Shown here piece after piece: positions 1-62,175 of a stretch of DNA of 64,000 nucleotides (within the stretch, counting starts at the first letter, position 1; the number at the start of each line of letters is the position of its first letter). A program made the position numbers and the translations under genes. The notes below the pieces were generated by a model. That model searched no databases and was not told the DNA's origin. It saw only the letters and a list, made by a program, of their open reading frames with translations. The stretch is from Posidonia oceanica. Lineage: Eukaryota; Streptophyta; Magnoliopsida; Alismatales; Posidoniaceae. The stretch is taken from contig JAZBRS010000054.1 in assembly GCA_037176725.1 (NCBI GenBank), positions 10,744,001 through 10,808,000 on the forward strand, given 5' to 3'.

Positions 1-2166
1 TAATGGCTCTCCTAGAGGTTTCTTTGGGACTTCAAATGGATTGAGGCAAGGGGATCCACTCTCTCCTCTTTTATTCATAGTTGCAATTAATATCCTTAAT
101 AGAATGCTGGCTTTAGGGATATTAAGTAATCTTCTTCATGGAATACAATTTCCCCATAGAGGACCTCAAGTGCTGAATCTCCAATATACGGATGATACTC
201 TTATTTTCTTGTCCCCTGATGAGAAGGAGATCATTAATCTTAAAAGAATCCTAGATTGTTTTCAGGCATGCTCCGGACTTAAAATAAATTTCAGTAAGTC
301 TTCCCTCACAGGCATTAAGATGCATGATGAGCAGGTGACAAGATTCAGTTCTATCCTTGGTTGTAGTGTTTCAAAGTTGCCTATTGTATACTTGGGCTTG
401 CCTCTACATTTCAAAAAAGCTTCATTTAAGAACTGGACTCCAGTTTTAGATAAGGTGACCGCTAAGCTGGACTCTTGGAAGGCAAATCTCCTGTCGATGG
501 GAGGTAGACTTACACTTATTAACTTAGTCCTTACTGCTATTCCAACATACTATTTGTCTATGCTTCATTTATCTAAGAGGGTGGAGGGAGAAATTGATCG
601 TATCCGTAGACGATTCTTATGGAAAAATCGATCCTCTTCAAATTCTGGATATTGTTTGGCCAAATGGGGGAATATTTGTCGCAGTAAATCTCAGGATGGT
701 TTAGGGATTATTAATCTGAGTAATTTTAGTATAGCATTGAAATGTAAACTTTTATGGAATCTCATGGGGACTGCTCAAAAACTTAAGTGGTCCAGTTTAA
801 CCATTAATAGATACTGTGCTAGGAATAGTCTTGGGGCCCTTCTTAATAGGGCGCTAAATGGCACCTCCCCAATGTGGAAGGAGCTCAAAAAGTGTTTCCC
901 TATTGTTAATTTGCTTTTCTCATTTTCTTTAAGGAATGGTAAAACTATTATCTTCTGGGAGAATAAGTGGTTTGGGGATCTAACTTTGAAAAATGTTTGG
1001 CCATTTTTATATTCATTAGCTAGAAAAAAGAAATGTTCAATTGAAACAATGATGCAGTTTTATACTGATAGACAATTAGATATTTTCTCTATTAACAATG
1101 ACCATTTAAACTTTTTCCATTCTTCGTGGGAGTTGCATGATTTTATTATGACAATGGACTCAGTTCGACTGCTGCAGGGTCTGATATTATAGAATGAGCC
1201 CTTACTTCAAACAGGAAATTTACTGTTAAGAGTTGTTATGGGTTCCTTAATGATGAACGACACCGATCAAAGTATCTGGGTAATATCTGGAAGGCTACTG
1301 TCCCTATTAAGGTTAAAGTGTTTGCTTAGTTGGCAACCCATAATAAGACACTATCTAAAGAAAGGTTAGGCAGGCGAGGGTGGTTGGGTTCCCAGATTTA
1401 TGATATCTGTGGGTCGCATGTAGAGTCCAATAATCATATTTTTTTACATTACTCCTTTGTTATTAGCGTCTAGGATTTCTTCCTGTCTAATAGGGGATGT
1501 TTATTGGAGACTCACATTTTAGATGTCTTTTCTTTATTCTAATTCTCTAAATTCAATATTTCAAGACAATGTTGGTGTATTTTAGTGTTATCTATCCTTT
1601 GGTCGGTTTGGCTTAATAGAGATGCTGTGATTTTCAGAAACAAGGCAAGCAACTTAGCATCAATTTTTTTTCAAATCTTTCACTTTACTACTATATGAGC
1701 AAAAACTAATCTAACAGGGCGTACTTCTACGGCTTCATCGGTGTCTCATGCAATCCATCAATTCCATTAGGACTAGGATTTTTCCCATGGAGGGCAATTG
1801 TTGAATGCTGAGGTAAATGCTGTTGAGACTGCGTTGGCTGCTGCTCGTGAGGCTGATTTGGATCTCCTGGTCCTTGATCCGTCGATCGTTGAATCGGGCA
1901 ATTAGTTATTTTACTCTATGAAACTGAATTTTTTTGGTGGACTGTATTAATTTTTTGGCCATATTCTCCTTGACTGTGGACATACTTACCTTCTGATTGT
2001 TGGCTTTTGCTGATGGGTGTATGTTTCTCCACCAATGGGTTTGTTTGGGGTGCCTTTTCCCCAGTGGTTTGGGACTCTGAAACTTTGTATTTTTTTGATT
2101 GCTTGGCAGTGGTACACATAGCCAAGTATAAATATAATAGATAATCCTACTATTCTAAAAAAAAAA
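1..2166 (+). mobile_element. LINE A (L1-type), 3' part, decayed
   Basis: The window opens inside a non-LTR retrotransposon on the plus strand. The reverse transcriptase is readable to about 1190, followed by a broken zf-RVT-like region, then a C-terminal tail ending in V-E-S-G-N and TAG at 1903-1905. About 250 nt of 3' UTR follow, ending in a ten-A run at 2157-2166, taken as the poly(A) tail. The tail motif and the UTR length match LINE B and LINE C in this window, so all three are related. The 5' end and any target-site duplication lie outside or are unrecognised. Confidence 0.85.
2..1905 (+). pseudogene. LINE A ORF2: reverse transcriptase C-terminal half plus degraded zf-RVT region
   Basis: The frame is open from base 2 to 1192 and shows RT motifs: R-Q-G-D-P-L-S-P-L-L (template-binding block), Q-Y-T-D-D (catalytic box, T instead of the usual A or V), then G-L-K-I-N-F-x-K-S and Y-L-G-L-P-L. 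After the stop at 1190-1192 the reading continues only in pieces: F-T-V-K-S-C-Y-G-F-L-N-D near 1215, K-V-K-V-F near 1312, and a C-terminal tail at 1812-1905. The multiple stops and shifts show it is dead. In an active element this protein would prime reverse transcription at a nicked target site in the nucleus. The upstream endonuclease domain is outside the window. Confidence 0.85.
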
Positions 2167-3097
2167 CCATGAAGACATTCGCAATCATAGTTCAATTTGA
2201 AGAAACAACATGATAACACGAGAATTGATTTGCTGAGTAACAAAATCTAAAGTCAAGCAGCTTCACAGGGCAAAGATATAAAGGTTACATAAAAAATTGC
2301 AAGATCCTGCATCAGAAAAAAAAAAATCACAACAATCATACGGTTTCACAGGATGAACATAGATATTAAAAATTAAACTAAAGCAAACAAAGAGAATTGG
2401 TTAAGGTAAGCAGAGAATGATCGCTGACATGAGAATGGAGTTGCCCACCATTTCCCATCCCTCTCCTTGCTACTTAAGTAGCCATTCTAACCACTTTCTC
2501 TTACAGGTCCTCTAAAATTTTGGATAGATTGGACTGTATTCAAACGTATCATTCTTTTCTACATATTCACGAATAGCTGACCTGCGACACCAAAAAACAA
2601 CAACAAAGAGTACAACTCAACACTTCAGAGAACATACCAGATTACCATTACCATAACCTCTCTGCTTTGTATAAATGCAAGAACTATTGCTGCCCTCGAG
2701 TAACTTCCAAGTTGCGGAACTCCAAAAGCAACATTCTTCCAGAACACCGGCGGTGAGAAGACAATGGGGTAATGGACTGCCAAACATATGGACCAATACG
2801 ATACTTCAGCAAAGTAACATATTATACACACTAGTCTAGGAAAAAAGTCTTTTGCATATGTACCTCTGTAAATATTCAAATTTGTAGGTATGCTCCTTTA
2901 AACAATATAAATTATTACATACTCTTGTACATGCATCTATGGTTCTATACCGTTCTCTCGAGGGCAAGAGGAAAAAAAAAAGGAAGAAAAAAACCCGGGA
3001 AGTGTGAGACACTCAAGATTCCTCCCTCTCGGGTCTCTAATCTAGCTTCTACAAACGAGGCCAAAGTCTCCGTCAAAAGAGAGGTTTTTCCCGTCCT
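2167..3097. other. Intergenic spacer and probable promoter/5' UTR of the DUF167 gene
   Basis: About 930 bp lie between the LINE A tail and the DUF167 start. The right end (about 2940-3097) becomes less AT-rich and is the likely promoter and leader. A minus-strand reading frame at 2625-2879 has hydrophobic stretches but no family I recognise and no splice context. No TATA box is clear enough to call. Confidence 0.4.
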
Positions 3098-6000
3098 ATG
3101 GCGCCTCCAAAACGAAGCAAGGGGAAGAAGGACGCCGCCCCTCCCGCCGCCGCCTCCACGAAATTCCCCACTTGCATCCGCCTGGTACCGCCGTCCACTG
3201 TCGCCATAAGCATCCACGCCAAACCGGGCTCGAAGGTCGCGACCATCACAGGTCCTCCCACACCGTCTCCCACTTTCTGAATTTTCTTTTTTGGAGTTCT
3301 TCTTCTTTGTCTTATATCAGTCGTTGGTTTCGGCGGTGGCAGACTTCGGGGATGAGGCAGTGGGAGTCCAGATTGATGCGCCCGCAAGAGACGGTGAAGC
3401 CAATGCCGCCCTTCTCGAATACATAAGCTCGGTAAGATTATGAACTTGAGACTTGCTAGAGTAGCAGAATTGTTGATCTTTAGCCTCGAAGGGAGGGTTT
3501 TTTTAGATGGTATAAGCTATATTTGGAGAATCATACCATTGCCAAGGAATTTGGAATATTTGTGCTAGTTTTCGTATTCTTTTGTTGTAGAGGAATTGGT
3601 GAGTCACTATAGTTGCACCTTTTTTCGAAAGGCATGTATTAATACCCTCAAGGAGGTCTACTACAAGCATTGATATGTTTCAGTTTTCAGCGAGAGCAAT
3701 TCCGTCGATGTGTTTTCCTCGTTGAGTTCTATCCATGGTTGAGAGACAACAGAGATAGATGTGTTTTGTTTCATAAGGAAAACGTCAAAGGTAGACGATA
3801 TTTTGAGAGCACTGGCAGGCCAGCAATGCGTGATCTGAATATCCATGGCACGATATTTTGATGTGATGATGAAAGGCGGATTCTAGAATTTCAAGATATG
3901 TACAGACATAATAAAACTATAAAAGAGAGACAAAAGTTGGGCACTTATATTACGGATGGCATGTGAGTCCACAAAGTCCATTCCTTTCCCTGTTGAGGAT
4001 CGTTCTGTCAGCGATTCCATTTCCAGCTAAAGCTTTCGTTGTCTCTATCTCCAGGTACTAGGAGTTAAAAAAGGCAATCCTGTGTTGACTTTGGTTCAAA
4101 AACAAGGGATAAGATTGTTCTTTGGACGAAATGTCTTAAAGTGTCTTTGATGTTGCAAGGATCGTTAGTGTGGAGACATGTTGGTTTGAGCATGGATTCT
4201 TTTCATTCCATCGTTCTAACACGATTAATTTAGCACTGACAATCTTATCTTCCATTTGCCTCTGTAAATCACCATGTCCTCCTCTCTCTAGTCATGGAGA
4301 GGCTCAGAATTGGGAAGCTCTTAAGGAATTGCTCAAAGGGTTCAATGCTGGAAAGGGGCATTCAGCTCCATGGAGCATTGGTCAAGATGGGTTTCGATCC
4401 TGACATTATGATTAGCAATGACCTCATAGATATGTATGGAAAATGTGGAAAACTAGATATGGCAAGTGAATTGTTCGAGCAAATGCCTGAACGGAATGTG
4501 GTTTCTTGGACGATGCTTATTGGTGCCCATCTGCAACATGGACATCCAAAGAAAGCATTGAACATTTTCTGTCAAATGTGCTCTTCGGAAGTCAGACCAA
4601 ATGAGTTCACGCTTTCAACTGCTGTTAAAGCTTGCAGCATTGTTGGTGTGGTGGAGAATGGAATGCAGATCCATGGACTATGTGTTAAGACTGGATACGA
4701 GGGATATCCTGTAGTAGGCAACTCTTTGGTTTACATGTACTCTAGAAGCGAACTGACCAAAGATGCAAGGCAGATATTTGACAGAATGCCAGTTAGGAAT
4801 CTCATAAGCTGGAATGCCATGATTGCTGGGTATTCCATGGGAGGACAAGGGAGTGATGCCCTTTTTCTGTTCCGAGAAATGCAGAAAGTAGGTGAGATTC
4901 CTGACGAGTTCTCGTTTGCAAGTGTGCTGAAAGCATGCAGTTGTCTTGGGGTGATTCATGAAGGGACACAAGTTCATGCATTGTTGATCACCAATGGCTC
5001 CATTGCCTTTGCTAATGAGATATTATTTGGCGCTCTTGTTGATTTTTATGTAAAAAGTAGAAGCTTGAGGGAAGCAAGGAAAGTATTTGACATGACTTCG
5101 CAGAAGAATGTGATCACGTGGACAACACTAATCATGGGCTATGTACAAGAGGGGCTTCTGAGGGAATCCATGGATCTCTTCAACATTTTGTGGAGGTCTG
5201 GAGCTCAAATGGATGGATTTGTTCTTTCGAGCATCATTGGTGTGTTTGCTGATTTTGCTATGATTGAACAAGGAAAACAAATGCACTCATATGCCATGAA
5301 AGTCCCATGTGGAGATGTTTCAGTGGGAAATTCAATTATCGACATGTACATCAAGTGTGGATTGACAGAGGAAGCAGAGCGAAAATTTAGGGAAATGCCA
5401 AAGAGAAATGTGGTTTCCTGGACGGTGATGATCAATGGCTATGGAAAGCACGGCAATGGTTATGACGCTATACGCTTGTTCAAGGAAATGCGGCAGGAAG
5501 GATTGCAACCAGATGATGTTACCTATCTGGCTGTGCTCTCTGCGTGCAGCCATGCAGGACTCATTAAAGAATGTTGGGATTACTTCTCAATTATGCAGCA
5601 AGAGAACCAAAAATGCCTGAGGGTAGAGCATTATGCCTGCATGGTTGATCTTCTGGGAAGGGCCGGGCAGTTGAAGGAAGCCATAAGTTTCATAGAGAAG
5701 ATGCCACTAAAGCCTAATGTTGGTATATGGCAGACACTAATTAGTGCTTGCAGAGTACACAAAGATGTGCACATGGGCAGAGAGGTGGGAGGGATTCTTT
5801 TGAATTTAGATGGTGAGAACCCTGTGAACTATGTGATGCTATCCAACATCCATGTAGATGCCGGAGAATGGAAAGAGTGTGAGGAGCTAAGGAAGCTGAT
5901 GAAGAGGAAAGGGCTCAAGAAACAGGGAGGTTTTAGCTGGATAGAGATTGAAAAACAAGCACACTTCTTCTATGGAGGCGATTATTCACATCCTTTAATG

Positions 6001-8509
6001 GAGAGAATCCAAGGGATGCTGATGGAGGTGGAGAGGAGAATGAAGGAAGAGTTCGGGTACAATTTTGACGTGAGGTTCGCCATGCATGATGTGGAGGAGG
6101 AATCAAAGGAGGATAGTTTGCGATTGCATAGTGAGAAGCTGGCTGTTGGGTTGGGGCTATCATGCAGTGGCTTGGGGAGTGGAGATGTGATCAGGGTATA
6201 CAAGAACCTAAGGGTTTGTGGTGATTGCCATGAGTTCATGAAAGGTGTATCCAAGGTAGTCAATAGGGTGCTGGTGATCAGAGATGCCAACAGGTTCCAT
6301 AGGTTTGAGGCTGGGGCTTGCTCTTGTGGTGATTACTGGTAATTTTTTTCATTAGGAAGGTTAAATTAGTTTTCGGTGTTTTGGTGGAGGGTGGGATTCA
6401 TAGACAAGGCATTTGGGAGTTCAGATTGTTGTACCTGCAAGAGATGGTGAAATCAATGTGGCGTTTCTCGATTACATAAGCCTAGAGGTGCCAAATTTGA
6501 TGAAAATTGTGGAATACTTGGTATCAGATTTGAATTAAGGCCATGCTAGAATAACATTGTAGAGCTATTGCCTCAAAGGGAGATTTTAGTCTAATGCGTA
6601 AAATGAAGAACAGAGGAATGATAGAATATGTTTTCTTTTATATTATCGTTGCGTAATCAGGAGAATTCATGCTACTTTTCATAATTCACTGCTATGAAAG
6701 AATTGGTGACAACGATGAGTATGACAAGCTGATATAAGATGCTATATCTACTATGTGAAAATTTGCATTCAGGTACTGAGTTATGTTTTATAATTAGGAT
6801 CATGCAACGCAATAGAAGAATAGCATGGTATTTTAGCTTGCCTATCTGCACTGCTAATAATGGAGCAATTTCCATCGCATGTCAAGTAGAACTGAGGATT
6901 AGAAATGGTGGTTTTATTGGTGTATTTTGACTTGCTGAGTTGCTGCATGGCACCTGAGAATCTCTGAAATTGAAGAAACAAAAGAAACATACTGAGAAAA
7001 TATTTCTTTTCATGGTTCTCTTACGTTTGAGAGGCTAATATAAGATGCTATATCTACTATGTGAAAAATTGCTTTCAGATACTGAGTTATATTTTATAAT
7101 TAGGATCATGCAACGCAATAGAAGATAGCATAGTATTTTAGCTTGCCTATCTGCACTACTAATAGTGGAGCAATTTCCATCGCATGTCAAGTAGAACTGA
7201 CGATTTAGTAATGGTGGTTTTATTGGTGTAGTTTGATTTGCTGAGTTGCTGCATGGCACCTGAGAATCTCTGAAATTGAAGAACAAAAGAAACATACTGA
7301 GCAATATATTTCTTTTCATGGTTCTCTTAAGTTTGTTGAGGGTGGGCAAGAAAGTTCTTGTTATTAACGTGGTGTGCTGCTTCTCACGGTTGTCTTTGTT
7401 GCTTTAAAATTGAAAATTAATTGTGTGCTGTTCTTATTGCAAAATTTATGGATCTTTGCTTTCACTAAGAGCATTGTTTTGCACAAAACAAATCTTTCAG
7501 ACAAGCATCATAAGCCAACTGTCAAGGTCCCATTTAACCTTGTATTGGAGCATTAAAAATAAATCCTAGACTTCATCATTCTGGCTTGAAACTTGGGAAT
7601 AATGCAAAGCTTGCATTTTTTATTGTCTCACATGATATTTGTAAGATCACTGTGTAATTCTGTCTCTTTTATTCCGTATGTATGCATCTGGATTTCCTAG
7701 AATCTGTCTTTGCATATTGTTTCAGTGCATGACATTGGATCATGTGCTTCTGGTCTGCCGCTACAATTATCATCACTTTTTATGTATTGCTTATGAAAAA
7801 AACCACACCTAACTTCATGATGCGACAAAGGCATTGAACTTGGATGGTCCCAATGGAAAACAAAAGGTTTATGTTGCCAACACTGCAAGGTGGGACCTGG
7901 GCATTGTTGTTGAAAAACAGGTATTAATGCTTGGAACTTAACTCGTTGAGGATGTTTGTATGTGCTTTGGAAATTGAAAAAAAAGGTACAACTGATCGTC
8001 ATTGAAGATTTGAAGCTCTGCATGCATGCCATGGACTGCAGTCTAAACTAACCTTCAGCTTTATTTACATAAGAATTATAACAAACTATCAGTTGCAATA
8101 GTTTTCCTTCTTTATTTTTGTTTCATACCTTTTTGTTTATGCATCATCCATATCTATATTTGCAATAATTTTTAATAGTGAGGTGTCTATTATTGGATTC
8201 ATGTTCATAGGATATGACTCAAGTCTTATGGCTGCTTGTCAACCTAATGCAACCCTCCTTAGCGTGGGCCTTGGGACTGGCTGTGTGATTTATGAACCAA
8301 TTATTTTCAGTGTTTTCATCCCCTTCCTTTCTTTTTGAGGATCGTCCAGCTAAATTTTGCATTATCTATTTCATCAGGTGCTAGGAGTCAAAAAAAGGCA
8401 ACTATCTATTGGTTCCGGTTCAAAATCAAGAGAGAAGGTTGTGCTTGTGGAGGAAATGTCTCTTCAAAGCGTCTTTGATGCTTTAGATAAGGCTTGCAAA
8501 GATCAATAG
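3098..8509 (+). CDS. UPF0235/DUF167 (YggU-like) family protein, 3 exons, 124 aa
   Basis: The exons read as 3098-3251, 3343-3431 and 8378-8509. The phases fit exactly: exon 1 ends on one base of a codon, exon 2 completes it ([11 protein letters not shown]), and exon 3 starts in phase 0 (V-L-G-V-K-K-R-Q). Total 375 nt including TAG. Family signatures are [26 protein letters not shown] and G-S-G-S-K-S-R-E-K. The length fits plant members. The N-terminus ([11 protein letters not shown]) is basic. The biochemical role of DUF167 is not established. The exon 1 donor (GTCCTC) is weak; the exon 2 donor (GTAAGA) is good. Intron 2 is 4.9 kb and contains a whole PPR gene plus decayed copies of exons 2 and 3. 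The start is the ATG opening the conserved N-terminus. Confidence 0.85.
4055..4150 (+). pseudogene. Decayed duplicate of DUF167 exon 3 (possible alternative last exon)
   Basis: The segment aligns with true exon 3 at 8378, starting V-L-G-V-K-K after an intact acceptor (CTATCTCCAG, ending 4054). Similarity extends upstream into the intron (GAGGATCGTxC and CAGCTAAA shared) and downstream into the 3' UTR (GGAGACAT shared). The conserved G-S-G-S-K-S core is lost and the frame reaches TGA at 4148-4150. Read from exon 2 it stays in phase, giving 31 codons and a 112-aa isoform. It is most likely a relic. Use as an alternative terminal exon is inference and would need transcripts. Confidence 0.7.
4294..6342 (+). 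CDS. DYW-class pentatricopeptide repeat protein, intronless, nested in a DUF167 intron
   Basis: A single 682-residue frame. It has tandem PLS-type PPR units from about residue 5 to 500, with repeated [14 protein letters not shown] and L-x-A-C-S-H-A-G motifs, then E/E+ motifs ([28 protein letters not shown]) and a full DYW domain ending exactly in D-Y-W. The deaminase-like centre is intact: H612-S-E614, C642-x-x-C645, H669, C676 and C678. Such proteins bind organellar RNA and the DYW domain performs C-to-U editing. The overall sequence recalls Arabidopsis At3g15130 from memory, including the shared I-I-G-V-F-A-D-F-A. The start is the first ATG after an in-frame TAG at 4231. The N-terminus is short and shows no clear transit peptide. 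Same strand as the host gene. Confidence 0.93.
6392..6483 (+). pseudogene. Decayed duplicate of DUF167 exon 2
   Basis: This aligns with true exon 2 (3343-3431). Both contain the string for P-A-R-D-G-E and end in ACATAAGC. The copy has one extra T after GCA, a one-base frameshift, and its donor is destroyed: CCTAGA stands where the true exon has GGTAAGA. Similarity continues into the intron (CTAGA and GCCTCxAAGGGAG shared). It cannot serve as a coding exon. With the exon 3 relic at 4055 it marks a partial tandem duplication of this locus. Confidence 0.75.
6732..7337 (+). repeat. 306-bp tandem duplication in DUF167 intron 2
   Basis: Two adjacent copies (6732-7037 and 7038-about 7337) share ATATAAGATGCTATATCTAC at the left and CATGGTTCTCTTA at the right, with scattered substitutions and small indels. 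It is non-coding. It lies within the second-copy intron, so it arose after or independently of the exon duplication. Confidence 0.85.
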
Positions 8510-9775
8510 CGGAGACATCACACAAACTTGTTACAAACTGATGCTTTGAACCACAACTTTTTAAACCTGTTCTATTGTTGAATGGTTGACAAAAAGTTGT
8601 ACTGGTGTCTCTGGGGCGGGCTCTATCAATGTCTTTCCAAGCGTCATTTTCATCGTTGCTTGGGAAGTCATGGACGATATGACAGACAACCTTATAGCAA
8701 GAGTCCAGTGGTAGCCATGATTGTGCGTGTAAGATTGATGTTTCCTACTGAAGCTTGAGTTGTAGGTTTATGAGATAAGTATCCTAAGATTGCTTTTTGC
8801 ATGGGGTGTTTTTCTCTATTATCGATTGTGATACCAATAATATGTTGGATATGGTGCGAAGCCAATTTACTGACGAAGTTCTAATATTGCACATTTTATT
8901 TTGCATGTGGAAATAAAAGTAGTGTATGAACCCCTGCTAGGGTCTTGTTGAGGTTTATGAGGCAATGCTGCTGTTATGGTTGTGTTAATGACTACGTTTA
9001 GCAATGAAGTCTTAAAAAAAATACTGTTTGCCAAGATTCAATAGAATAGAGTTAGAATTCTACATTATCCTTTTATTGTGTGGAAAATTTAGAGTTCAAA
9101 CTTTTACTAGGTGCTTGATGGTGGAGGTTTCTACCAATTTAGCCTTCTTTGAAAATAATAATAATTTTAGAAAATTGAGTTGCTACCAAGACGGAAAGGT
9201 GAAAGCAATTCTACCCGGCAACCATGTGATATAATAATGGATGTGTCTATGATATCTACAAAGATATCAAAAAATTTAGTGGATATCGGAACTTTTTAAT
9301 CTTGATCATTCATTTAAACATATGGATAATGAGATTTATAATTGTAAATAAGCAATTGTAATTATCTATTGGTAGCTACAGTTGTGTAAGACAAAATCAT
9401 AGGTATCATAGAATCTTCTTATAATAATTCATATAAGATCAAATGAAGTAAAATCAAGACCTAATTAAGCAACTTGACTATTGTCATGAAGAAGCCAAAT
9501 AAAGAAAGAAACTAAGAAAAAAAAAAGGAAGAAAGAAAATTGCATTTGTCAAAGTGCTCAAAAAGGTAATTACACATATACATGGTAATGATTTGTTAAC
9601 ATTAAGAAATAAAAAAATCACTCTCCTACCTCTTGACTCCTATTTCTTTTTTGTGCATTATGATCAAAGTTTCTGGCCTTCTGCTGACAAGGCAGAACGG
9701 CCAGCTTGAAATCTGTTATGTTCAATTTGTTGGCTTCACGCTGACCCCTTGGAATAGTTTCAAAACTAAATACAA
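8510..9775. other. 3' UTR and convergent intergenic spacer
   Basis: The DUF167 gene and the TTL gene converge here. The first few hundred bases are probably DUF167 3' UTR. The rest is AT-rich with A-runs near 9520 and shows no reading frame, RNA gene or repeat that I can support. Confidence 0.4.
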
Positions 9776-12700
9776 TCACACTGCTCTCTTTTCCTGATAG
9801 CTATTTAAACTCTTGATGCATTGTTCCAACGTGTCCCAATCAGATCCATCAATGTCTTTAAATGTTGAACCATCTTTGTAAATCCTGAATGATGGTATAG
9901 TGCTCACTTCATCGGATTCTGCTAAGTCGGCGCTATCTTCTATGTCCACCTGTGCATTGAATAATAAAACTAGAGTAAGAATTAACACAAACTGGATCGT
10001 TTTAAACTAAGTTTTACCATAACATTCCTCTAACTTCGAACCTGTATAGAATTGATTCAATATGTTAATGGTAAATTGGCAACATTTCAATGTTGTGCTT
10101 TTAGTGGCTAGAGAATGCACAGTGAGCATTCAGTCAGTAGGGCTTTATCCTGCATTATAGCATGTTCTATTGGAGGATTCCTTGTACATTTGATGCCACT
10201 TTTGGAACCCTTCAAAAGTTGTACTGAAGGGATTATTACCAAGTATTATTACGAATTGCTTCCTTTGATTCGAGGAATCTATGACTGGCTCTTTGTTGTT
10301 ACCTAAGGTGGCATTTGGAACTGCATCTTTTCCCGAAATTTTTCCCAAAGCATTTCTGTCACTACACCTCATTTACTCCATGAAGTAAGTGACTTCTTAC
10401 CCACTTTCTTTGGAAGCTAAACTGGGATTTTTGCTTCCATGTTTCGAAGGGGTACACTCCAAGTGCTTCCTTAATCAGTATTGTCGAACTAACTCTTTTG
10501 TTAAAAGTAACACGAACAATTAGAAAAGAGAAGGCAATCACAAACCTTGGCAAATTTAACGGATGGATATTTCCGATGTAGCTGCTCCATGAAAGGTGTC
10601 ATCTGCTTAGCCTCACTTGATTTGTCATAGAAAAGTACAATAGATGCTCCTGTCACCAATTAGGAATGAATGGGGAATGGAAATCAGGAGAGTTAGGATA
10701 ACAGGAATTATGAAGTTCTTATAGTGAACCAGCTCATAGTTCGATGTTTTATATATTGGGTCATTAGCAACCAAGAACAAAAATATCTTTCCCAAGTGAT
10801 TCAAACTGGATCCTATAGTTAGGCAATCACAAAATTTGGCAATTTCAAACTTGTTGTTGACTTCAGTTTGTGGATATAATACCACTTCTTTTTTCTTTTT
10901 GCCTCATATATTTTGTTAAATGCAGGCATTAATTTTGACTAGATAAGTGGAAATACCAGTGGACTCGACTATGTGGGTGAATTGGTCGTCAGTTGTGATA
11001 ATAGAAACACCATCCTCGAGCTTTGCATCATCTACATCTTCACCTCTCTCCTTCTTGAGTTGGATCTGAACCTCGGCAAGGGCCTTCTGAACTTCCTGGT
11101 CCCCTGGCATATCTTGGATCAATACCTCATAATCTTGTAGCGCGGCTTCCCATTTCTCCAACTATTACCAGACCAAAATGTGTAAGCCAAAATGATTTTC
11201 AACATTAAGTCTTTACCTATTGGAAGTATAAAAGACAACTAGTCACCTTTGTACAGCAGTCAGCTCTCCTTAGACGAGCTTTGCTATATGAAGGGCGTAC
11301 ATTCAGAGCCTTGGTACAGTCTTCAATTGCCCTTTCCCATAGCCCAAGTTTTGTCTTACAAGCAGCTCGGTTGCATAAAAGAACAGAATTGTGTGAATCA
11401 TGATCTAGGCCCTCCCCATACGCCATACTTGCCTCCGAAAACCTCGATGCTTTGAAAAGTTCGTTGCCTTTTGATCTAGCAGACGCAACAACTCGAATTT
11501 TTCGCATCACAGCTGCTGCCTCTTTGCTGCTTGGGTCAACGCGAGTAGCCTTCTGAGCAATAGATACTGCCCGATCAAACCTTTTGAACCAAATGAAACT
11601 AGCATCTAATCAGTTTTGTATTGGTCCAACATAAGCTGCCGTAGTTAATCAAACATCAATGCTACATAGTTAACATGTAATCGTGCCATTTATAAACAAA
11701 AAGTAGAATGGACACTCTTGTTGTGATTATTGTGGTGAACTTTGTTAAATCGGTATAAATTCTTACCTCCCAACTGACATGTCGATCTGTGCTCGAACAG
11801 TGAGGATGTATGCATTGCCAGGAGCGCCAAAAAACTTAGTAGATTCATCAATCTCAAAGGTGGGAGAATCAATTAGAACCATGTCCGCTTCTTGATGCCT
11901 TTGGAGCTTTAGAAGCGCCTCTGCTTGTGCAGCAAAGACCTTTCAACACACAAAAGTGCAGGCAGCAATATGAGATTGTGAAGTAATATCATCAGGTAAG
12001 TCCTAATGATCATTAATAACCCACTCCATTTTCTCATCATTGACAACAACCATTCAGTTTGTAACTTAGAGATTTTCTGCCTTTCTATGTATTTTAGCAT
12101 AACAATAAGTTATGATTTTTAAATTAAAGGTATACTATAACCATTTTGCACGATAAGTTACAATTATAGACTTCAGTGATATCAATGGAATACAACTTTT
12201 ACATAAATTATCTCTATACAGGAGTGTAAAACAAACACAAGCCATTTCTCTGATTATAGAACTTCAAGAGTAACAATTGTGTCATCCAACCAGGTGTAAT
12301 ATAACCAGTGTGATTTAGCTACCAGAAACAAAAAGGATGCATAAACAAAAATGACTTGAGCAATTATCCACTAGATTCTACATTTGTGTTTGTACAGACA
12401 AGTTGTCGGAGGACGATAATATCTTGCTTGTGCTTTTAGTGAAAGCTATTGTAGAATGAGGTGCGAAGTCTGCCTACCTGAGGAGCAGAATCAGCACCAG
12501 AAGACATGGTTGTCTCTGCTTCTTTCAGCACAGTGTGCCAGTTCTTCAACCTGCGTGCTTCGTTGCATTTGCTAATGTGCATTTGAAGATTCTGTGCTTG
12601 TGCCATATCCTTGGAACTGGCTTCATTTCCTGCTAGTTTGTAATGATATACAGCTTTCTCAGCTTCTCCCAGTCTGAAAATGTTTGTGCTACTAATGTCA

Positions 12701-15700
12701 GAGTGAAGTTTTTTTAACTGAAATGCTTAGAGCCATCTTTCTAATTCTAATGTCATACTATTGATAGGAACCAAAAAGAGATCTGTGGCTTGATTGTACT
12801 AATAGGTGAGATTGATAGGCATTTCTTTAGTTTCATACTGAATAGGGTAAATGTAAGTCAAAGAACAATGGAGGAATACAACACCTCAATTTATTGATTC
12901 CCTTTTTGTGTATATATAGAGAAGTACAAATCTTTTAGGAAAAGTTGTTACAGTTATTACAAGCAATTATACAGATCTAAAAGGCTTAATTTGAGGGTTT
13001 GTTACTACTGTAAATACTCCCTCGCAAGCGAATGGGATTGAAACGAACCATAAGCTTGAACATGAGAGAACTAAATCTTGAAAAGACAGTCCTTTTGCAA
13101 AGATATCAGCAATTTGATCAATGGAGGAGACGAAGCGCACTTGGAGCTGCTTGCGACTAACCCGTTCGCATACAAAGTGAAAGTCGATTTTGATGTGCTT
13201 TGTACGGGCATGGAAGACAGAATTAGCAATGAGATAGATAGTAGATAAGTTGTCGCACCATAGTGTAGGAGCCACGAGAAGATGCAACCCCAGTTCAGAC
13301 AGTAGACTCTGGATCCAAATCAATTTACTTGTGGCATTTGCCAATCCTTTATTTTCAGACTCAATGCTTGAGCAAGCAACAATCCATTGCTTTTTAAAGC
13401 TCCAGGAGATCAAATTGGGATCAAGAAAGATGACGATTGACAGAGCAACCAGCCCAATCAACGTTTGAATATGCATGGAGAGCGTCAAGAGGTGCTTTAG
13501 TGAAAAGAAGGCCGTGGGAAATGGTGCGTTTGAGGTAGCGAAGAATGCACTTGACATAAGTCCAATAACCGTTTGTTGGTTGATGCATGTATTGACAAGC
13601 TTGGTTGATTGCAAAGGCAATGTCAAGCAACATAAGTGTAAGGTACTGGAGTGCACCTATGATGCTACGATTGAGCGTGGGATCCTCAAATGGTTTGCTT
13701 TCACAAGGGGCTGGTCGAAGGCCAACAACGACAGGGAAAGTCACCGGTTTGGCATCCACCATGTTGCTTTTTTGAAAAAGAAAGGTTATATAGCCAGTTT
13801 GTGCTAGAAGTATGGAAGATGAAGTGACGATTGCCTCAATACCAAGAAAGGAGCAAAGATTACCCAGATGTTTCATTGCAAATTTCTATTGAAGAGAAAG
13901 ATTCATGTCTCCTAATGGTGCTCCAGGAGAGCTAGTAAGGATGTCATCAACGTACACAAGCATAAATATTGTGAAGTGATCTGTGTGCTTAGCGAACAAG
14001 GAGGGGTCAACCTTTGATCCGACGAATCCAAGATGTTGTAGATGGAAACTAAGACGATGGAACCATGCATGTGGAGCCTGTTTAAGCCCATATACTGAAC
14101 GACGCAAACGACAGACAACAGATGGTTGAGGTGGATCAACGAAGTTGGGAGGTTGTTTCATAGAGATAACTTCGTTAAGATAATTGTGAAGGAACACATT
14201 CTTCACATCTAGTTGTTGAATTTCCCATCCTCCAGACACTGCAATACTTAGAACTGTGTGGATGGTAACTTGTTTTACAACTAGATTGAGTGTGTCATGG
14301 TAGGCGACACCCTTGCATTGGTTGAAGCCCTTGGCAATAAGCCGAGCTTTGTAACGATCGATGCTGCTGTTAGAGTGACGTTTGATCTTAAACACCCATT
14401 TGCAGCCAATGATATGGCGATGTGGAGGGGAGGGTTTCAAGGTCCAAGTGCCGTTACTGATCAAGCCATGATATTCATCGGCCATTGTTTCACGCCATCG
14501 AACATCAGAGGAAGCTTCAGAAAAACACATAGGCTCATGACCAGTGGCACAAGCAGTTAGGGCGAGAGGGTGTTTAGTCTTGATCACTTGGTGAGGACGG
14601 AGAGTACCATCCCTAGATCAAGTCATCATGTGGTGGCCAGACATAGAGTTCGTGGGTTATGGTGGAGCTCGATCAGGTGTTGAGGAGGCTGACGGAGGTG
14701 AAAGGATGGCTACTTGATTTGAATGGCCAGTAGCAACTAGTATAGAAGGGTCACCGGAAGGGGTGATGACGATTGGATGATGGCGACGACGCTCGTAGGC
14801 CATGGATGGGGCGCAGAGTGGTGCAAAAGCGGAGGGCTTCAAAGAGACAACAACAACAGCAGGGATGGGAGGATGTTCGAGTGGCATCAAAATGCTTGGT
14901 GGCAGAGTTCGTAGAGGATCTCGAGCAGCGGAGGAAAGAGGTCATGATGGGTTGCTATCCAACTCATTAGCAAGGCCTATAAAAGAAGAAATACTCGCAA
15001 AAGTAGTGTTATAAGAGGCAATGGGATTAAGGGGAAATTGATGTTCCGCAAAGAGCACCTGACGAGAGATATACATACGACCAGTAGTGGGATCAAGACA
15101 ACGTTAGCTAATATAAACAGGAGGGTAGTCAAGAAAGACTTAAGGTACAGACAAAGTTTTTTTTAGATGTAAAATAAGAAAAATAGTAATAAATAAAAAG
15201 TAATATTGGTATTCTGATAGTATTGCTATTTTATTTGGAAATGATTTTCTTTTAAAAATAAATAAATATGTATAAAGAGATATTCTCGTTTGGATAAAAA
15301 GTTGAATAAATATCAAAATAAGTATTGGAATAAATAGAAAACATGTAGATTAAAATATATATACATCATATTATATATATATTAATTTTTAAACAAAAAA
15401 TAAACACATCGTATATATACATTTATCATATTAATTTAGCGGAATAACTTTATTCTACCTTTCCAACAGAATAGTTATTCTAGAATAAGTAAATCAGAAT
15501 AAGAATTACTATTCCACTTTTATTCCACTTTTTGACTTACCAAATGGAATTGTAATTCCAATTCTAATTTTATTCTACTCTTTATTCCGATGCCAAAGAA
15601 AAGCTAAGGGTATAACTTGTGCTGTTTGTGGGAGCATAGATATGGAAAACACCAACACCCAAAGGTACGAAGAAAGGAGTAGTCCAAGATTTTTTTAAAG

Positions 15701-59499: not shown

Positions 59500-62175
59500 A
59501 TGTCGACTGATGGGGAATGGGATGTCGACGTTGTCGAGATCGATCCAGAGAAGCGATACGTTCGGGTAAGTCTTCTTGCAACAAGAGAAAAAGAACGCAT
59601 CTTTTTTGTTTTATAAATGTGTTTTTTTTTTTTAAAATCTGTTATATTGGGTCGGAGGTTACACCGATCGGTAAATATGGTGGTTTCCTTGAACAGCATA
59701 GCGAAGTATTGGGGAGAGGCTCGTTCAAAACTGTGTACGTTGTTGTTTCTTTTCGTTGATTTGATTTTCATTATTCTGTTATTGTTGTTGTTGTTTGTTT
59801 GGATAAAATTTAGGGGTATCATGCACTGTATTGTTCTTATGGCTTGCGATTAATAGCTACAAGGCGTTCGATCAATTGGATGGGATAGAGGTTGCATGGA
59901 ACCAAGTTGAGGTTCATGCGCTGTTGGAGGGCCGTGCAACCTTGAAGAGCTTGCATTCGGAAATTCAGCTTCTAAGGTCTCTTAGACACGACAAGATTGT
60001 CAAGTTCTTCAAGTCGTGGGTCGACCCTCAAAAGAAGACTGTCAATATCATCACCGAGCTTTTCACGTCGGGCAGTCTGAGACAGTATGATTTGTCCATG
60101 TTTCGCCTTTGTCCTTGTTCGGTTTTATGTGTGGTAGGGTGATTAGTGACTTGGTGAATCTTGATGTAGGTATCGTGAGAAACATAAGAAGGTCGATATG
60201 AAGGCCTTGAAAGGATGGGCGAGGCAGATTTTGTTGGGATTGGATTATCTCCACAGCCTGAGCCCACCTATCATACATAGGGATCTAAAGTGTGATAACA
60301 TATTCATTAATGGTAACCATGGGGAGGTGAAGATCGGAGATCTTGGGTTGGCGACTATCATGCAACAGTCGAATAAACTAGGCGCATATGGTATCTTCTT
60401 CTCTGTTATTCGTATTTGTAATGCTTTGTAGGGATCTAATAAACTAAGAAAACGTTCTTAATGAGATGAGAAATGGGTTAGCATGCTTTTTGATCAATGC
60501 TGGATTACTTTAATTTGTGGAACTAGATTTTTCAGGTACTCTGGAGTTCATGGCACCAGAGATTTATAAGGAGGAGGATTATAATGAGTTGGTGGACATA
60601 TATTCTTTTGGCCTGTGTCTGCTAGAGATGGTGACCTTTGAGTATCCTTATAGCGAGTGCAAAAATCATGGCCAATTATATAGAAAGGTTTGCGCTGTAA
60701 GTGTCATCCACTCAATTAATAAAGGCTTTTCATCTGGTCAAATCTGTTGTTCAGTTATCAAACGTGTCCATGCTTATGTCCTTTTTAATGATTTTTCAGG
60801 GGAAAAAACCAGCAGGTCTGTCCAAGGTGAAAGATCCAGAAATGAAGGCTTTTATAGAAAAATGTCTTGTACCTGCTGCTGAACGTTTATCAGCAAAGGA
60901 ACTATTGAGGGACCCATTTCTTGGTGGTCCGGAAAGTGGGATTCGAGCAGCCATTCCCAATATTGAACAGATTAATAATCATTCTGCTCCTTCTGAAGGT
61001 CCTGGTTTCAATATTCGGAGATCACCCAGCTCCAGTGATATCGATGTTAATGTTGGCAATCCACCAATCATCTATGTGGTCAAGAACTCTGGTGATGATG
61101 GCTCCTACTCGTTCATCTTGGAAGTTCAAAAAAGGGTGAAAGATATTGAATTCAGATTGAAAGGGAGACTGAGAGATGAAAAGTCTGTTCTTCTGTTATT
61201 GCGGATTGCAGATGGACATGGTTTGTGAATTACTCCTCCTAGGCCTTGATTTTCATGTCAGAAAAACTATACATCAGTTGTAGGAATATATTATAAGCCA
61301 AATTTATATGATTTGAGACAGTGAGATACTAGTTCTTTGCAATTTTTTGTTGGATATACAGCTCTTCTGGAAACTTTTGAGTTTCCTTTCGATCTCAATA
61401 GTGACGCAGCGCTTTCAATTGCATATTCCTATTACAAGCCAAATTTATATGATTTTAGACAGTGAGATACTAATTCTTTGCAATTTTTGTTGGATATGCA
61501 GCTCTTCTGGAAACCTTTGAGTTTCCTTTTGATCTCAATAGTGACACGGCGCTTTCAATTGCAAGTGAAATGGCTGAACAGCAGCTTGAAATTGCTGCTC
61601 AGAATGTGGAGTTGATAAGTGAAATGATTGATTCATTGCTCGTTAACTTGGTTGATGGGTGGGAACCGTGTGTTTCCATGAATCGACTGGTTATTTTGGA
61701 CAAAAAGGCAACTTTTATTGGTAAAACCAAGGGCTTTCGAGCTGCTGAACAGGACACAAGCTCGGTGACATCTTTCCAGAACACCAGTTCATCTTCTGCT
61801 GACTCCATTGCAATGCATGTAGATAATGCTATGAAACATGAGGGTGCAGTCGTCATCAACACAAATGACAGCAAGTCTCATAGTGGGCGATCTTCATGTG
61901 CCAGTATGGATTGCAATGGGTATATTGCAAACAGTGCAACCAAGTGTTTTGCAGAACTTTATCATAGGAACATTCATGCAGGCCTTCAGGTTGATGGTGC
62001 TTGTCTGTCTTCCATCAATGTGAATGATGAGGATGACTCTGTGTTTAAGTGGGAGTTGGAAACAATAGAATTGCAATACCAGCAGGCGATGAAAGACATG
62101 TTTCAGAAAAGACAGAAGGCTATCTCGGAGGCCAGGCATAGAGCTGCACAGAGGAAGCTATTGGGTGTCCATTAA
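59500..62175 (+). CDS. WNK: WNK-family Ser/Thr protein kinase, 7 exons, 615 aa
   Basis: Exons: 59500-59565, 59658-59734, 59857-60084, 60170-60390, 60536-60696, 60800-61220, 61502-62175. The total is 1848 nt, in frame. The kinase domain is about residues 35-290. The glycine loop G-R-G-S-F-K46-T-V carries the catalytic Lys in the WNK position; V-A-W-N-Q-V replaces the usual Lys site. H-R-D162-L-K, K-I-G-D181-L-G and F-M-A-P-E follow. Y-S-E-C and [13 protein letters not shown] match plant WNKs. A regulatory region follows, with a C-terminal charged helix ([12 protein letters not shown]). WNK kinases act in ion balance, flowering time and stress signalling. Oddities: G-T-L-E-F instead of G-T-P-E-F, and an insertion (V-T-P-I-G-K) at the exon 1/2 join, where the acceptor choice is least certain. 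The subfamily (perhaps WNK8/10/11) is not resolved. Confidence 0.93.
61295..61563 (+). repeat. 141-bp tandem duplication spanning the last WNK splice acceptor
   Basis: Unit 1 is 61295-61435 and unit 2 starts at 61436; both begin AAGCCAAATTTATATGATTT. Each contains an acceptor (GGATATACAG ending 61361; GGATATGCAG ending 61501) and the first 60 or so bases of exon 7. Only use of the second gives the full-length protein. The first reads into the repeat and stops at TGA 61463-61465. Confidence 0.9.

What the first reader, a model, noticed from the sequence alone, without database searches (positions are those of the whole stretch)
3343..8509. Reciprocally decayed tandem duplication: one DUF167 gene spliced across two copies, trapping a PPR gene in its intron
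Exon 2 is intact at 3343 and decayed at 6392. Exon 3 is decayed at 4055 and intact at 8378. Flanking intron sequence also matches, so the exon2-intron-exon3 block was duplicated and each copy lost a different exon. The working gene must splice from the left copy's exon 2 to the right copy's exon 3, over 4.9 kb that include a complete DYW PPR gene on the same strand. This is a clear example of a nested gene made by duplication and complementary loss instead of insertion into an existing intron.
Basis: partly seen in the sequence, partly recalled or inferred. Interest (0 to 1): 0.78.

Follow-up and report, generated by a model that had tools for sequence, protein, structure and literature searches.

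The report
Plant gene spliced across broken duplicates
In a plant, probably a monocot, a neighbouring pair of genes was apparently copied in tandem, each copy then lost different pieces, and the only complete version of one small conserved gene now has to be spliced from the left copy to the right copy across an intact PPR gene lying between them.

Summary
The exon-2 and exon-3 blocks (3321-3428 ~ 6373-6481; 4022-4152 ~ 8345-8480) match beyond every one of 500 shuffles. Exon 2 is wrecked only on the right, exon 3 only on the left. Exons 3098-3251, 3343-3431 and 8378-8509 join in frame into a 124-aa UPF0235/DUF167 protein keeping 47 of 47 near-invariant family residues. At the divergence estimated for the right branch, with indels, 0 of 4000 simulated neutral copies of right exon 3 score as well as the weakest listed homologue, so it was selected while its own exon 2 decayed. 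Exon 1 exists only on the left, so splicing over the complete DYW-PPR gene is the simplest reading. No transcript was available to prove it.

Two corrections. (1) In Oryza and Colocasia gene models this same PPR lies directly upstream of DUF167, so the duplicated unit was probably the PPR-DUF167 pair, and left PPR and right exon 1 were lost too: four elements, each kept once. (2) The intron is collinear only near its ends; its middle is inverted between copies.

Main caution: the left exon-3 acceptor still looks strong, so a 112-aa truncated isoform may be made too.

The parts
3098..3251 (+). DUF167/UPF0235 exon 1 (start codon to donor), left copy; no counterpart found on the right
   Evidence: 17 of 17 near-invariant residues kept
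3252..3342 (+). intron 1 (GT...AG, 91 nt); its 3' end is the left edge of the detectable duplication (about 3321)
3343..3431 (+). exon 2, left copy, intact, donor G|GTAAG
   Evidence: 16 of 16 near-invariant residues kept
3432..8377 (+). inferred composite intron 2 (4946 nt) of the functional DUF167 gene, holding the whole PPR gene
   Evidence: frame stays open when removed; splicing not observed
3586..3975 (+). middle of left intron 2, homologous in inverted orientation to 7619-8022
4055..4179 (+). decayed exon 3, left copy: frameshifts, premature stop ending at 4150, 13-base deletion; acceptor AG retained
4294..6342 (+). complete single-exon DYW-class PPR gene, 682 aa, At3g15130 group; probably the right copy's ancestral upstream neighbour
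6373..6484 (+). decayed exon 2 with end of intron 1, right copy: aligned acceptor AG lost, insertions, donor altered
6719..7335 (+). two 93%-identical tandem copies (6719-7029, 7025-7335) inside right intron 2
7619..8022 (+). right intron 2 segment homologous to 3586-3975 in inverted orientation
8378..8509 (+). exon 3, right copy, intact to stop codon; acceptor TTTCATCAG|G
   Evidence: 14 of 14 near-invariant residues kept; profile score 139.8, upper quartile of 120 homologues 139.3

Best explanation
An ancestral pair, PPR gene then DUF167 gene on the same strand, was tandemly duplicated. Loss was complementary: the left unit lost its PPR and its exon 3, the right unit lost exon 1 and exon 2. 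The surviving DUF167 gene is transcribed from the left exon 1, runs through the intact PPR gene, and splices 3431 to 8378 to give the normal 124-aa protein. The PPR gene is thereby nested on the same strand in a 4.9-kb intron made of the two half-decayed copies. Shown by sequence: homology of the copies, lesions, intact frames, order in relatives' gene models, and (given the divergence estimate) selection on right exon 3. Inferred: that the whole pair was the duplicated unit, the order of losses, cis-splicing across the PPR, and independent PPR transcription.
For: Block homology beyond all 500 shuffles. The composite keeps 47 of 47 near-invariant residues, against 10 of 15 in the readable piece of right exon 2. 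Neutral simulation of exon 3 at K=0.2, the uncorrected estimate from right exon 2 (12 of 59 first and second codon positions), with 0.15 indels per substitution: 0 of 4000 copies score as well as the weakest of 120 homologues; 15 of 4000 without indels. Copy differences are fewer at codon positions 1+2 (23/135) than at position 3 (21/68, p=0.03), and position 3 resembles the intron flank (9/33, p=0.82): fits one constrained copy of each exon and no recent conversion. Models of relatives break or insert at these exon junctions (D. zingiberensis P0054, Colocasia P0133, Glycine soja P0244). Fusion models with PPR first and DUF167 second: O. punctata (2 members), O. nivara cluster (16 members), Colocasia (1). 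Adjacent tags E2562_025401/025402 and ACP70R_010661/010662.
Against: The left exon-3 acceptor is at least as pyrimidine-rich as the right one (13 of 16 against 11 of 16), so splicing to the decayed exon 3 should compete. Codon positions 1+2 do not differ significantly from the intron flank (p=0.22). At K=0.08 the simulation leaves 275 of 4000 (indels) or 1431 of 4000 (no indels) as good as the weakest homologue, so selection rests on the divergence estimate. No left PPR remnant was found, so the unit's extent is inferred. PPR-DUF167 linkage is not universal: of 26 species that I counted by eye as named in both capped lists, 6 show equal longest-contig lengths and 20 do not, including D. zingiberensis and Typha angustifolia. 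A transcript must pass the PPR's own termination region. No RNA data; no search of the rest of the genome (genome search did not complete).
Confidence: 0.7

Rival explanations
1. The left copy is the working gene and uses its own altered exon 3, giving a 112-aa protein with a frameshifted tail; right exon 3 survives by chance.
For: The left acceptor before 4055 is strong and closer; the 112-aa frame is open and still passes the Pfam cut-off (52.3 against 30.9 bits).
Against: Its Pfam match stops at profile position 58 of 76, the composite's runs to 76. Simulated neutral copies of right exon 3 as good as the weakest homologue: 0 of 4000 at K=0.2 and 14 of 4000 at K=0.145, both with indels (15 and 198 without).
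Confidence: 0.1
2. The composite gene worked until recently and the locus is now dying, or is a pseudogene backed by an intact DUF167 gene elsewhere; right exon 3 looks intact because its decay is recent.
For: The rest of the genome could not be searched, so another copy is not excluded.
Against: Exon 1, left exon 2 and right exon 3 together show no lesion and keep 47 of 47 near-invariant residues. Even if true, it implies that the composite functioned for most of the time since duplication.
Confidence: 0.12
3. Left and right parts are joined by trans-splicing of separate transcripts rather than in one long cis pre-mRNA.
For: The PPR gene between could terminate transcripts; the DNA does not distinguish the two.
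Against: Same strand, 4.9 kb apart, ordinary GT-AG signals; cis-splicing is simpler.
Confidence: 0.04
4. Assembly or haplotype artefact.
For: Assembly reads were not available.
Against: The copies differ at 9 of 33 intron-flank sites and 21 of 68 third codon positions, more than alleles would be expected to, and each has its own lesions; a mis-join would not produce complementary decay.
Confidence: 0.03

Closest known systems
Nested protein-coding genes (passages of PMC3933685 read)
   Same: One complete gene lies inside another gene's intron.
   Different: The origin given there for nearly all is insertion into a pre-existing intron (retrotransposition for single-exon ones), with fusion of flanking genes, acquisition of new exons or de novo origin as alternatives. 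Here the host seems to close around its own ancestral neighbour through tandem duplication and complementary exon loss, on the same strand.
Duplication-degeneration gene fission (monkey king, Drosophila; Wang, Yu and Long 2004, seen only as a reference and a table row in PMC3395120; details recalled)
   Same: Duplicate copies lose complementary parts.
   Different: There the halves become separate genes (recalled); here the halves would have to be spliced back into one.
Duplication-degeneration-complementation (Force et al. 1999, seen only in a reference list; content recalled)
   Same: Complementary degenerative loss preserves both copies.
   Different: The partition is between exons of one protein, so neither copy should work alone.
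Host/nested transcriptional interference at H13/Mcts2 (PMC13309782, abstract read)
   Same: A nested gene that can force premature host polyadenylation.
   Different: Imprinted mammalian locus; here the host's last coding exon lies beyond the nested gene and nothing is known of its regulation.

Membership tests
UPF0235/DUF167 (PF02594) | Profile match over the whole domain above the curated cut-off | tested here: met
   composite 78.9 bits against cut-off 30.9, profile 2-76 of 76
UPF0235/DUF167 (PF02594) | Plant family near-invariant residues | tested here: met
   47 of 47 columns, weighted from the 120 listed of 439 homologues
DYW-class PPR, At3g15130 group | PPR motifs, E motif, DYW deaminase domain to a C-terminal DYW | tested here: met
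   PF01535/PF13041, PF20431, PF14432 positions 1-93 of 93, ends CSCGDYW; group name from names given to relatives
Nested gene | One complete gene wholly inside an intron of another functional gene | tested here: inconclusive
   DNA anatomy and conservation fit; splicing and expression not observed
Nested gene | Host transcript spliced across the nested gene | not testable with these tools
   no RNA reads for this organism
Duplication-degeneration gene fission | Complementary halves function as separate genes | tested here: inconclusive
   right exon 3 has no exon 1 found and no usable exon 2, and the left-only product lacks the end of the domain, which speaks against; function of the halves not tested

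The most novel reading that the evidence does not exclude
Complementary exon loss between tandem gene pairs is a route to nested genes: the host reassembles itself from two half-dead copies and closes around its ancestral neighbour, without any insertion. The downstream exon copy would first have been a neutral backup reached by read-through transcripts, then became indispensable when the proximal exon decayed (constructive neutral evolution).
Probability: 0.6. Interest if true: 0.75.

Novelty: new variant of a known kind. Interest (0 to 1): 0.62.

Why it matters
Nested genes are mostly attributed to insertion into introns (stated in PMC3933685). This locus suggests a different route with its steps still legible, and because the order PPR-DUF167 survives in gene models of grasses and an aroid, the polarity can be read from relatives. 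It also asks how a short conserved gene can depend on transcription through a complete same-strand gene and on skipping a still attractive acceptor. An annotation pipeline could easily call such a locus a truncated gene or two fragments.

Tried and rejected
Second PPR copy. The window PPR against the rest of the window gave only chance hits (tblastn E 5.2; blastn E 0.43). Nine PPR homologues against 1-4293 and 6343-14000 gave no hit below E 0.05 except the DUF167 exons matched by the Colocasia fusion model. Duplicated exon 1 on the right: 117 of 500 shuffles reach the score. Homology beyond the exon-3 region (4180-4293 against 8500-9500): 82 of 500 shuffles reach it. Sequence upstream of exon 1 (2200-3060 against 6342-9500): 9 of 100.

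Inverted intron segment as an inserted element: no inverted repeat of 10 nt or more at its ends. One 12-nt, 83% pair (3566-3577, 3908-3919) lies in the left intron but has no counterpart in the right; 7560-8060 shows only a 10-nt hairpin. No third copy in the window at E up to 0.01. A simple inversion is preferred; an unlisted repeat family is not excluded.

Upstream kinase neighbour, suggested by kinase-PPR fusion models from Oryza sativa and Macleaya: apart from the PPR start included in the Macleaya query, the best window hit is about 31% at 60171-60690 (E 5e-5), taken as an unrelated kinase; the Oryza piece gave only E 0.19. Recent gene conversion of exon 3: third-position divergence resembles the intron flank.

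Literature: in nine searches no listed title or abstract start reported this locus or a nested gene formed by complementary exon loss; one search listed nothing. I looked further into five papers: passages of PMC9199173, PMC3488318, PMC3933685 and PMC3395120, and the outline with abstract of PMC13309782. The library is open-licence only, and PMC3380635 and PMC2747821 are not held. PMC9199173 (fusion genes in Oryza) has no hit for PPR, pentatricopeptide or DUF167 in its main text; its supplements were not read.

Full report
What is there. The window is plant DNA, judged by its relatives. One search shows a three-exon UPF0235/DUF167 gene starting at 3098. Exons 3098-3251 and 3343-3431 lie on the left; the matching third exon, 8378-8509, lies 4.9 kb downstream; joined they give an open 375-nt frame. 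The 124-aa product matches plant UPF0235 proteins end to end, best 80% identity over 100% of the query to Dioscorea rotundata, and passes Pfam DUF167 at 78.9 bits against a cut-off of 30.9. Between the parts lies a complete 682-aa DYW-class PPR gene, 4294-6342, of the At3g15130 group by the names given to its relatives.

The two copies. Blastn of left against right finds the exon-2 block at 72% (E=3e-14) and the exon-3 block at 76% (E=2e-22); none of 500 dinucleotide shuffles reaches either. Right exon 2 lacks the acceptor AG at the aligned place, has a 1-base insertion that shifts the frame and another near its 3' end, and its nearest GT reads GTGCC where the left has GTAAG. Left exon 3 has, relative to the right, 1-, 1-, 3- and 13-base deletions and an early stop, but keeps its acceptor. 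Exon 1 has no right-hand counterpart above shuffles: 117 of 500 reach its best score. Detectable homology runs from about 3321 in intron 1 to about 4179, just past the exon-3 stop.

3436-3602 matches 6527-6709 directly and 4022-4054 matches 8345-8377 directly, but 3586-3975 matches 8022-7619 in inverted orientation, 261 of 352 aligned bases; inverted z is 23.7, direct z is 0.4. There is no inverted repeat at the segment's ends, only one imperfect 12-nt pair elsewhere in the left intron, and no third copy in the window. An inversion inside one copy's intron is the simplest reading. The right intron also carries a 93% tandem repeat, 6719-7029 and 7025-7335.

Is the composite under selection? A weighted profile was made from the 120 listed of 439 homologues. 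Of 47 near-invariant columns the composite keeps 47 (17, 16 and 14 in exons 1, 2 and 3). The readable piece of right exon 2 keeps 10 of 15. Right exon 3 scores 139.8; the homologues' upper quartile is 139.3 and their lowest 97.6. The right branch's neutral divergence can be read from right exon 2, which differs from the left at 12 of 59 first and second codon positions. Simulating exon 3 at K=0.2 with 0.15 indels per substitution, 0 of 4000 copies reach the lowest homologue's score and 15 of 4000 without indels; at K=0.235 the numbers are 0 and 3, at K=0.145 14 and 198, at K=0.08 275 and 1431. The conclusion therefore rests on the divergence estimate. The indel ratio was chosen to resemble the gaps in the decayed exons. 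Pooled over both exons, copies differ at 23 of 135 positions 1+2 but 21 of 68 positions 3 (p=0.03); position 3 resembles the intron flank, 9 of 33 (p=0.82), while positions 1+2 against that small flank are not significant (p=0.22). This is what one constrained and one free copy would give, and it speaks against recent conversion. A right exon 3 with no exon 1 and no usable exon 2 of its own has no evident way to be selected as DUF167 except by being joined to the left exons.

The ancestral order. Two of the 120 PPR relatives listed carry PF02594: Colocasia P0133 and Oryza punctata P0229. Their sequences run PPR first, then a DUF167 protein. A third search, aimed at long proteins with DUF167, returned 8 proteins, 3 of them such fusions (O. 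punctata, 2 members; O. nivara cluster P0241, 16 members; Colocasia, 1), and all three sequences are PPR first. Of the other five I read two, P0242 and P0244; by domains none of the five is a PPR protein. I read the three as gene-model fusions of adjacent same-strand genes. Locus tags are adjacent in Oryza meyeriana (E2562_025401 PPR, 025402 DUF167) and Stipagrostis (ACP70R_010661 PPR, 010662 DUF167).

How general is the linkage? Of 26 species that I counted by eye as named in both capped lists show the same longest-contig length for the two clusters (Telopea, Spirodela intermedia, O. meyeriana, O. brachyantha, Stipagrostis, Zizania, the last with tags 210 apart) and 20 do not, among them D. 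zingiberensis, Typha angustifolia and Panicum virgatum. Equal length suggests the same chromosome and unequal length is only weak evidence against it. So PPR upstream of DUF167 is a probable old monocot state, kept in grasses and an aroid, not a universal one. In a 34-row PPR tree, unrooted, the window's gene lies with the 11 monocot rows chosen and one unnamed assembly (P0123, 70% identical), a set of 13 with 100/100 support. The organism itself was not identified.

History. From PPR-E1-E2-E3, tandem duplication gives PPR-E1-E2-E3-PPR'-E1'-E2'-E3'. The window keeps E1, E2, PPR', E3' and shows relics of E3 and E2'; no trace of PPR or E1' was found. Each functional element is then present exactly once. 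A copy of DUF167 alone inserted upstream of the PPR, or a PPR inserted between two DUF167 copies, would give the same end state. Duplication of the pair is preferred because a tandem copy of DUF167 alone would not put the PPR between the copies, and because the PPR is an old neighbour. Loss of E1' would have left the right exons reachable only from the left promoter; right exon 3 would have been a spare last exon and became necessary once left exon 3 broke. This order is inference.

Exon boundaries are ancestral. Models of relatives break or insert at these junctions: D. zingiberensis P0054 inserts residues at the E2/E3 junction, Glycine soja P0244 departs at the same place, and Colocasia P0133 has extra residues at the E1/E2 junction.

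What speaks against. The left exon-3 acceptor has 13 of 16 pyrimidines against 11 of 16 for the right one, so a 112-aa isoform lacking the end of the Pfam domain (profile 2-58 of 76) may well be made. Transcription must pass the PPR gene; at H13/Mcts2 active nested transcription promotes host intronic polyadenylation (abstract of PMC13309782). No RNA data were available, and the genome beyond the window could not be searched.

Known or new. [quoted passage not shown] Duplication-degeneration with separate halves is the mkg case (reference and table row in PMC3395120; details recalled). In the listings I saw no report of a nested gene formed by complementary exon loss. I rate it a new variant of a known kind.

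Noticed in passing
window 1-1192 and possibly on to about 2160: Decaying LINE-type reverse transcriptase (recognised by eye from the translation; no family scan) upstream of DUF167, where a left PPR copy would be expected; its insertion or a linked deletion may have removed that PPR.
   Followed up: no
window 3586-3975 and 7619-8022: Homologous intron segments in inverted orientation between the two copies, with collinear intron on both sides.
   Followed up: partly
window 6719-7335: Tandem repeat with a 306-bp offset, 93% identical, in the right copy's intron.
   Followed up: no
window 12967-14587, minus strand: Fragments that read like a Copia-type polyprotein (by eye; no family scan).
   Followed up: no
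P0225 and P0162: Kinase-PPR fusion models in Oryza sativa and Macleaya suggest a longer ancestral block kinase-PPR-DUF167; from memory, At1g49180 (kinase) and At1g49170 (DUF167) are neighbours in Arabidopsis.
   Followed up: partly
P0133, P0229, P0241: Database proteins fusing PPR and DUF167 in Oryza and Colocasia look like annotation read-through of adjacent genes; the O. punctata model changes only the last DYW residue before running on.
   Followed up: partly
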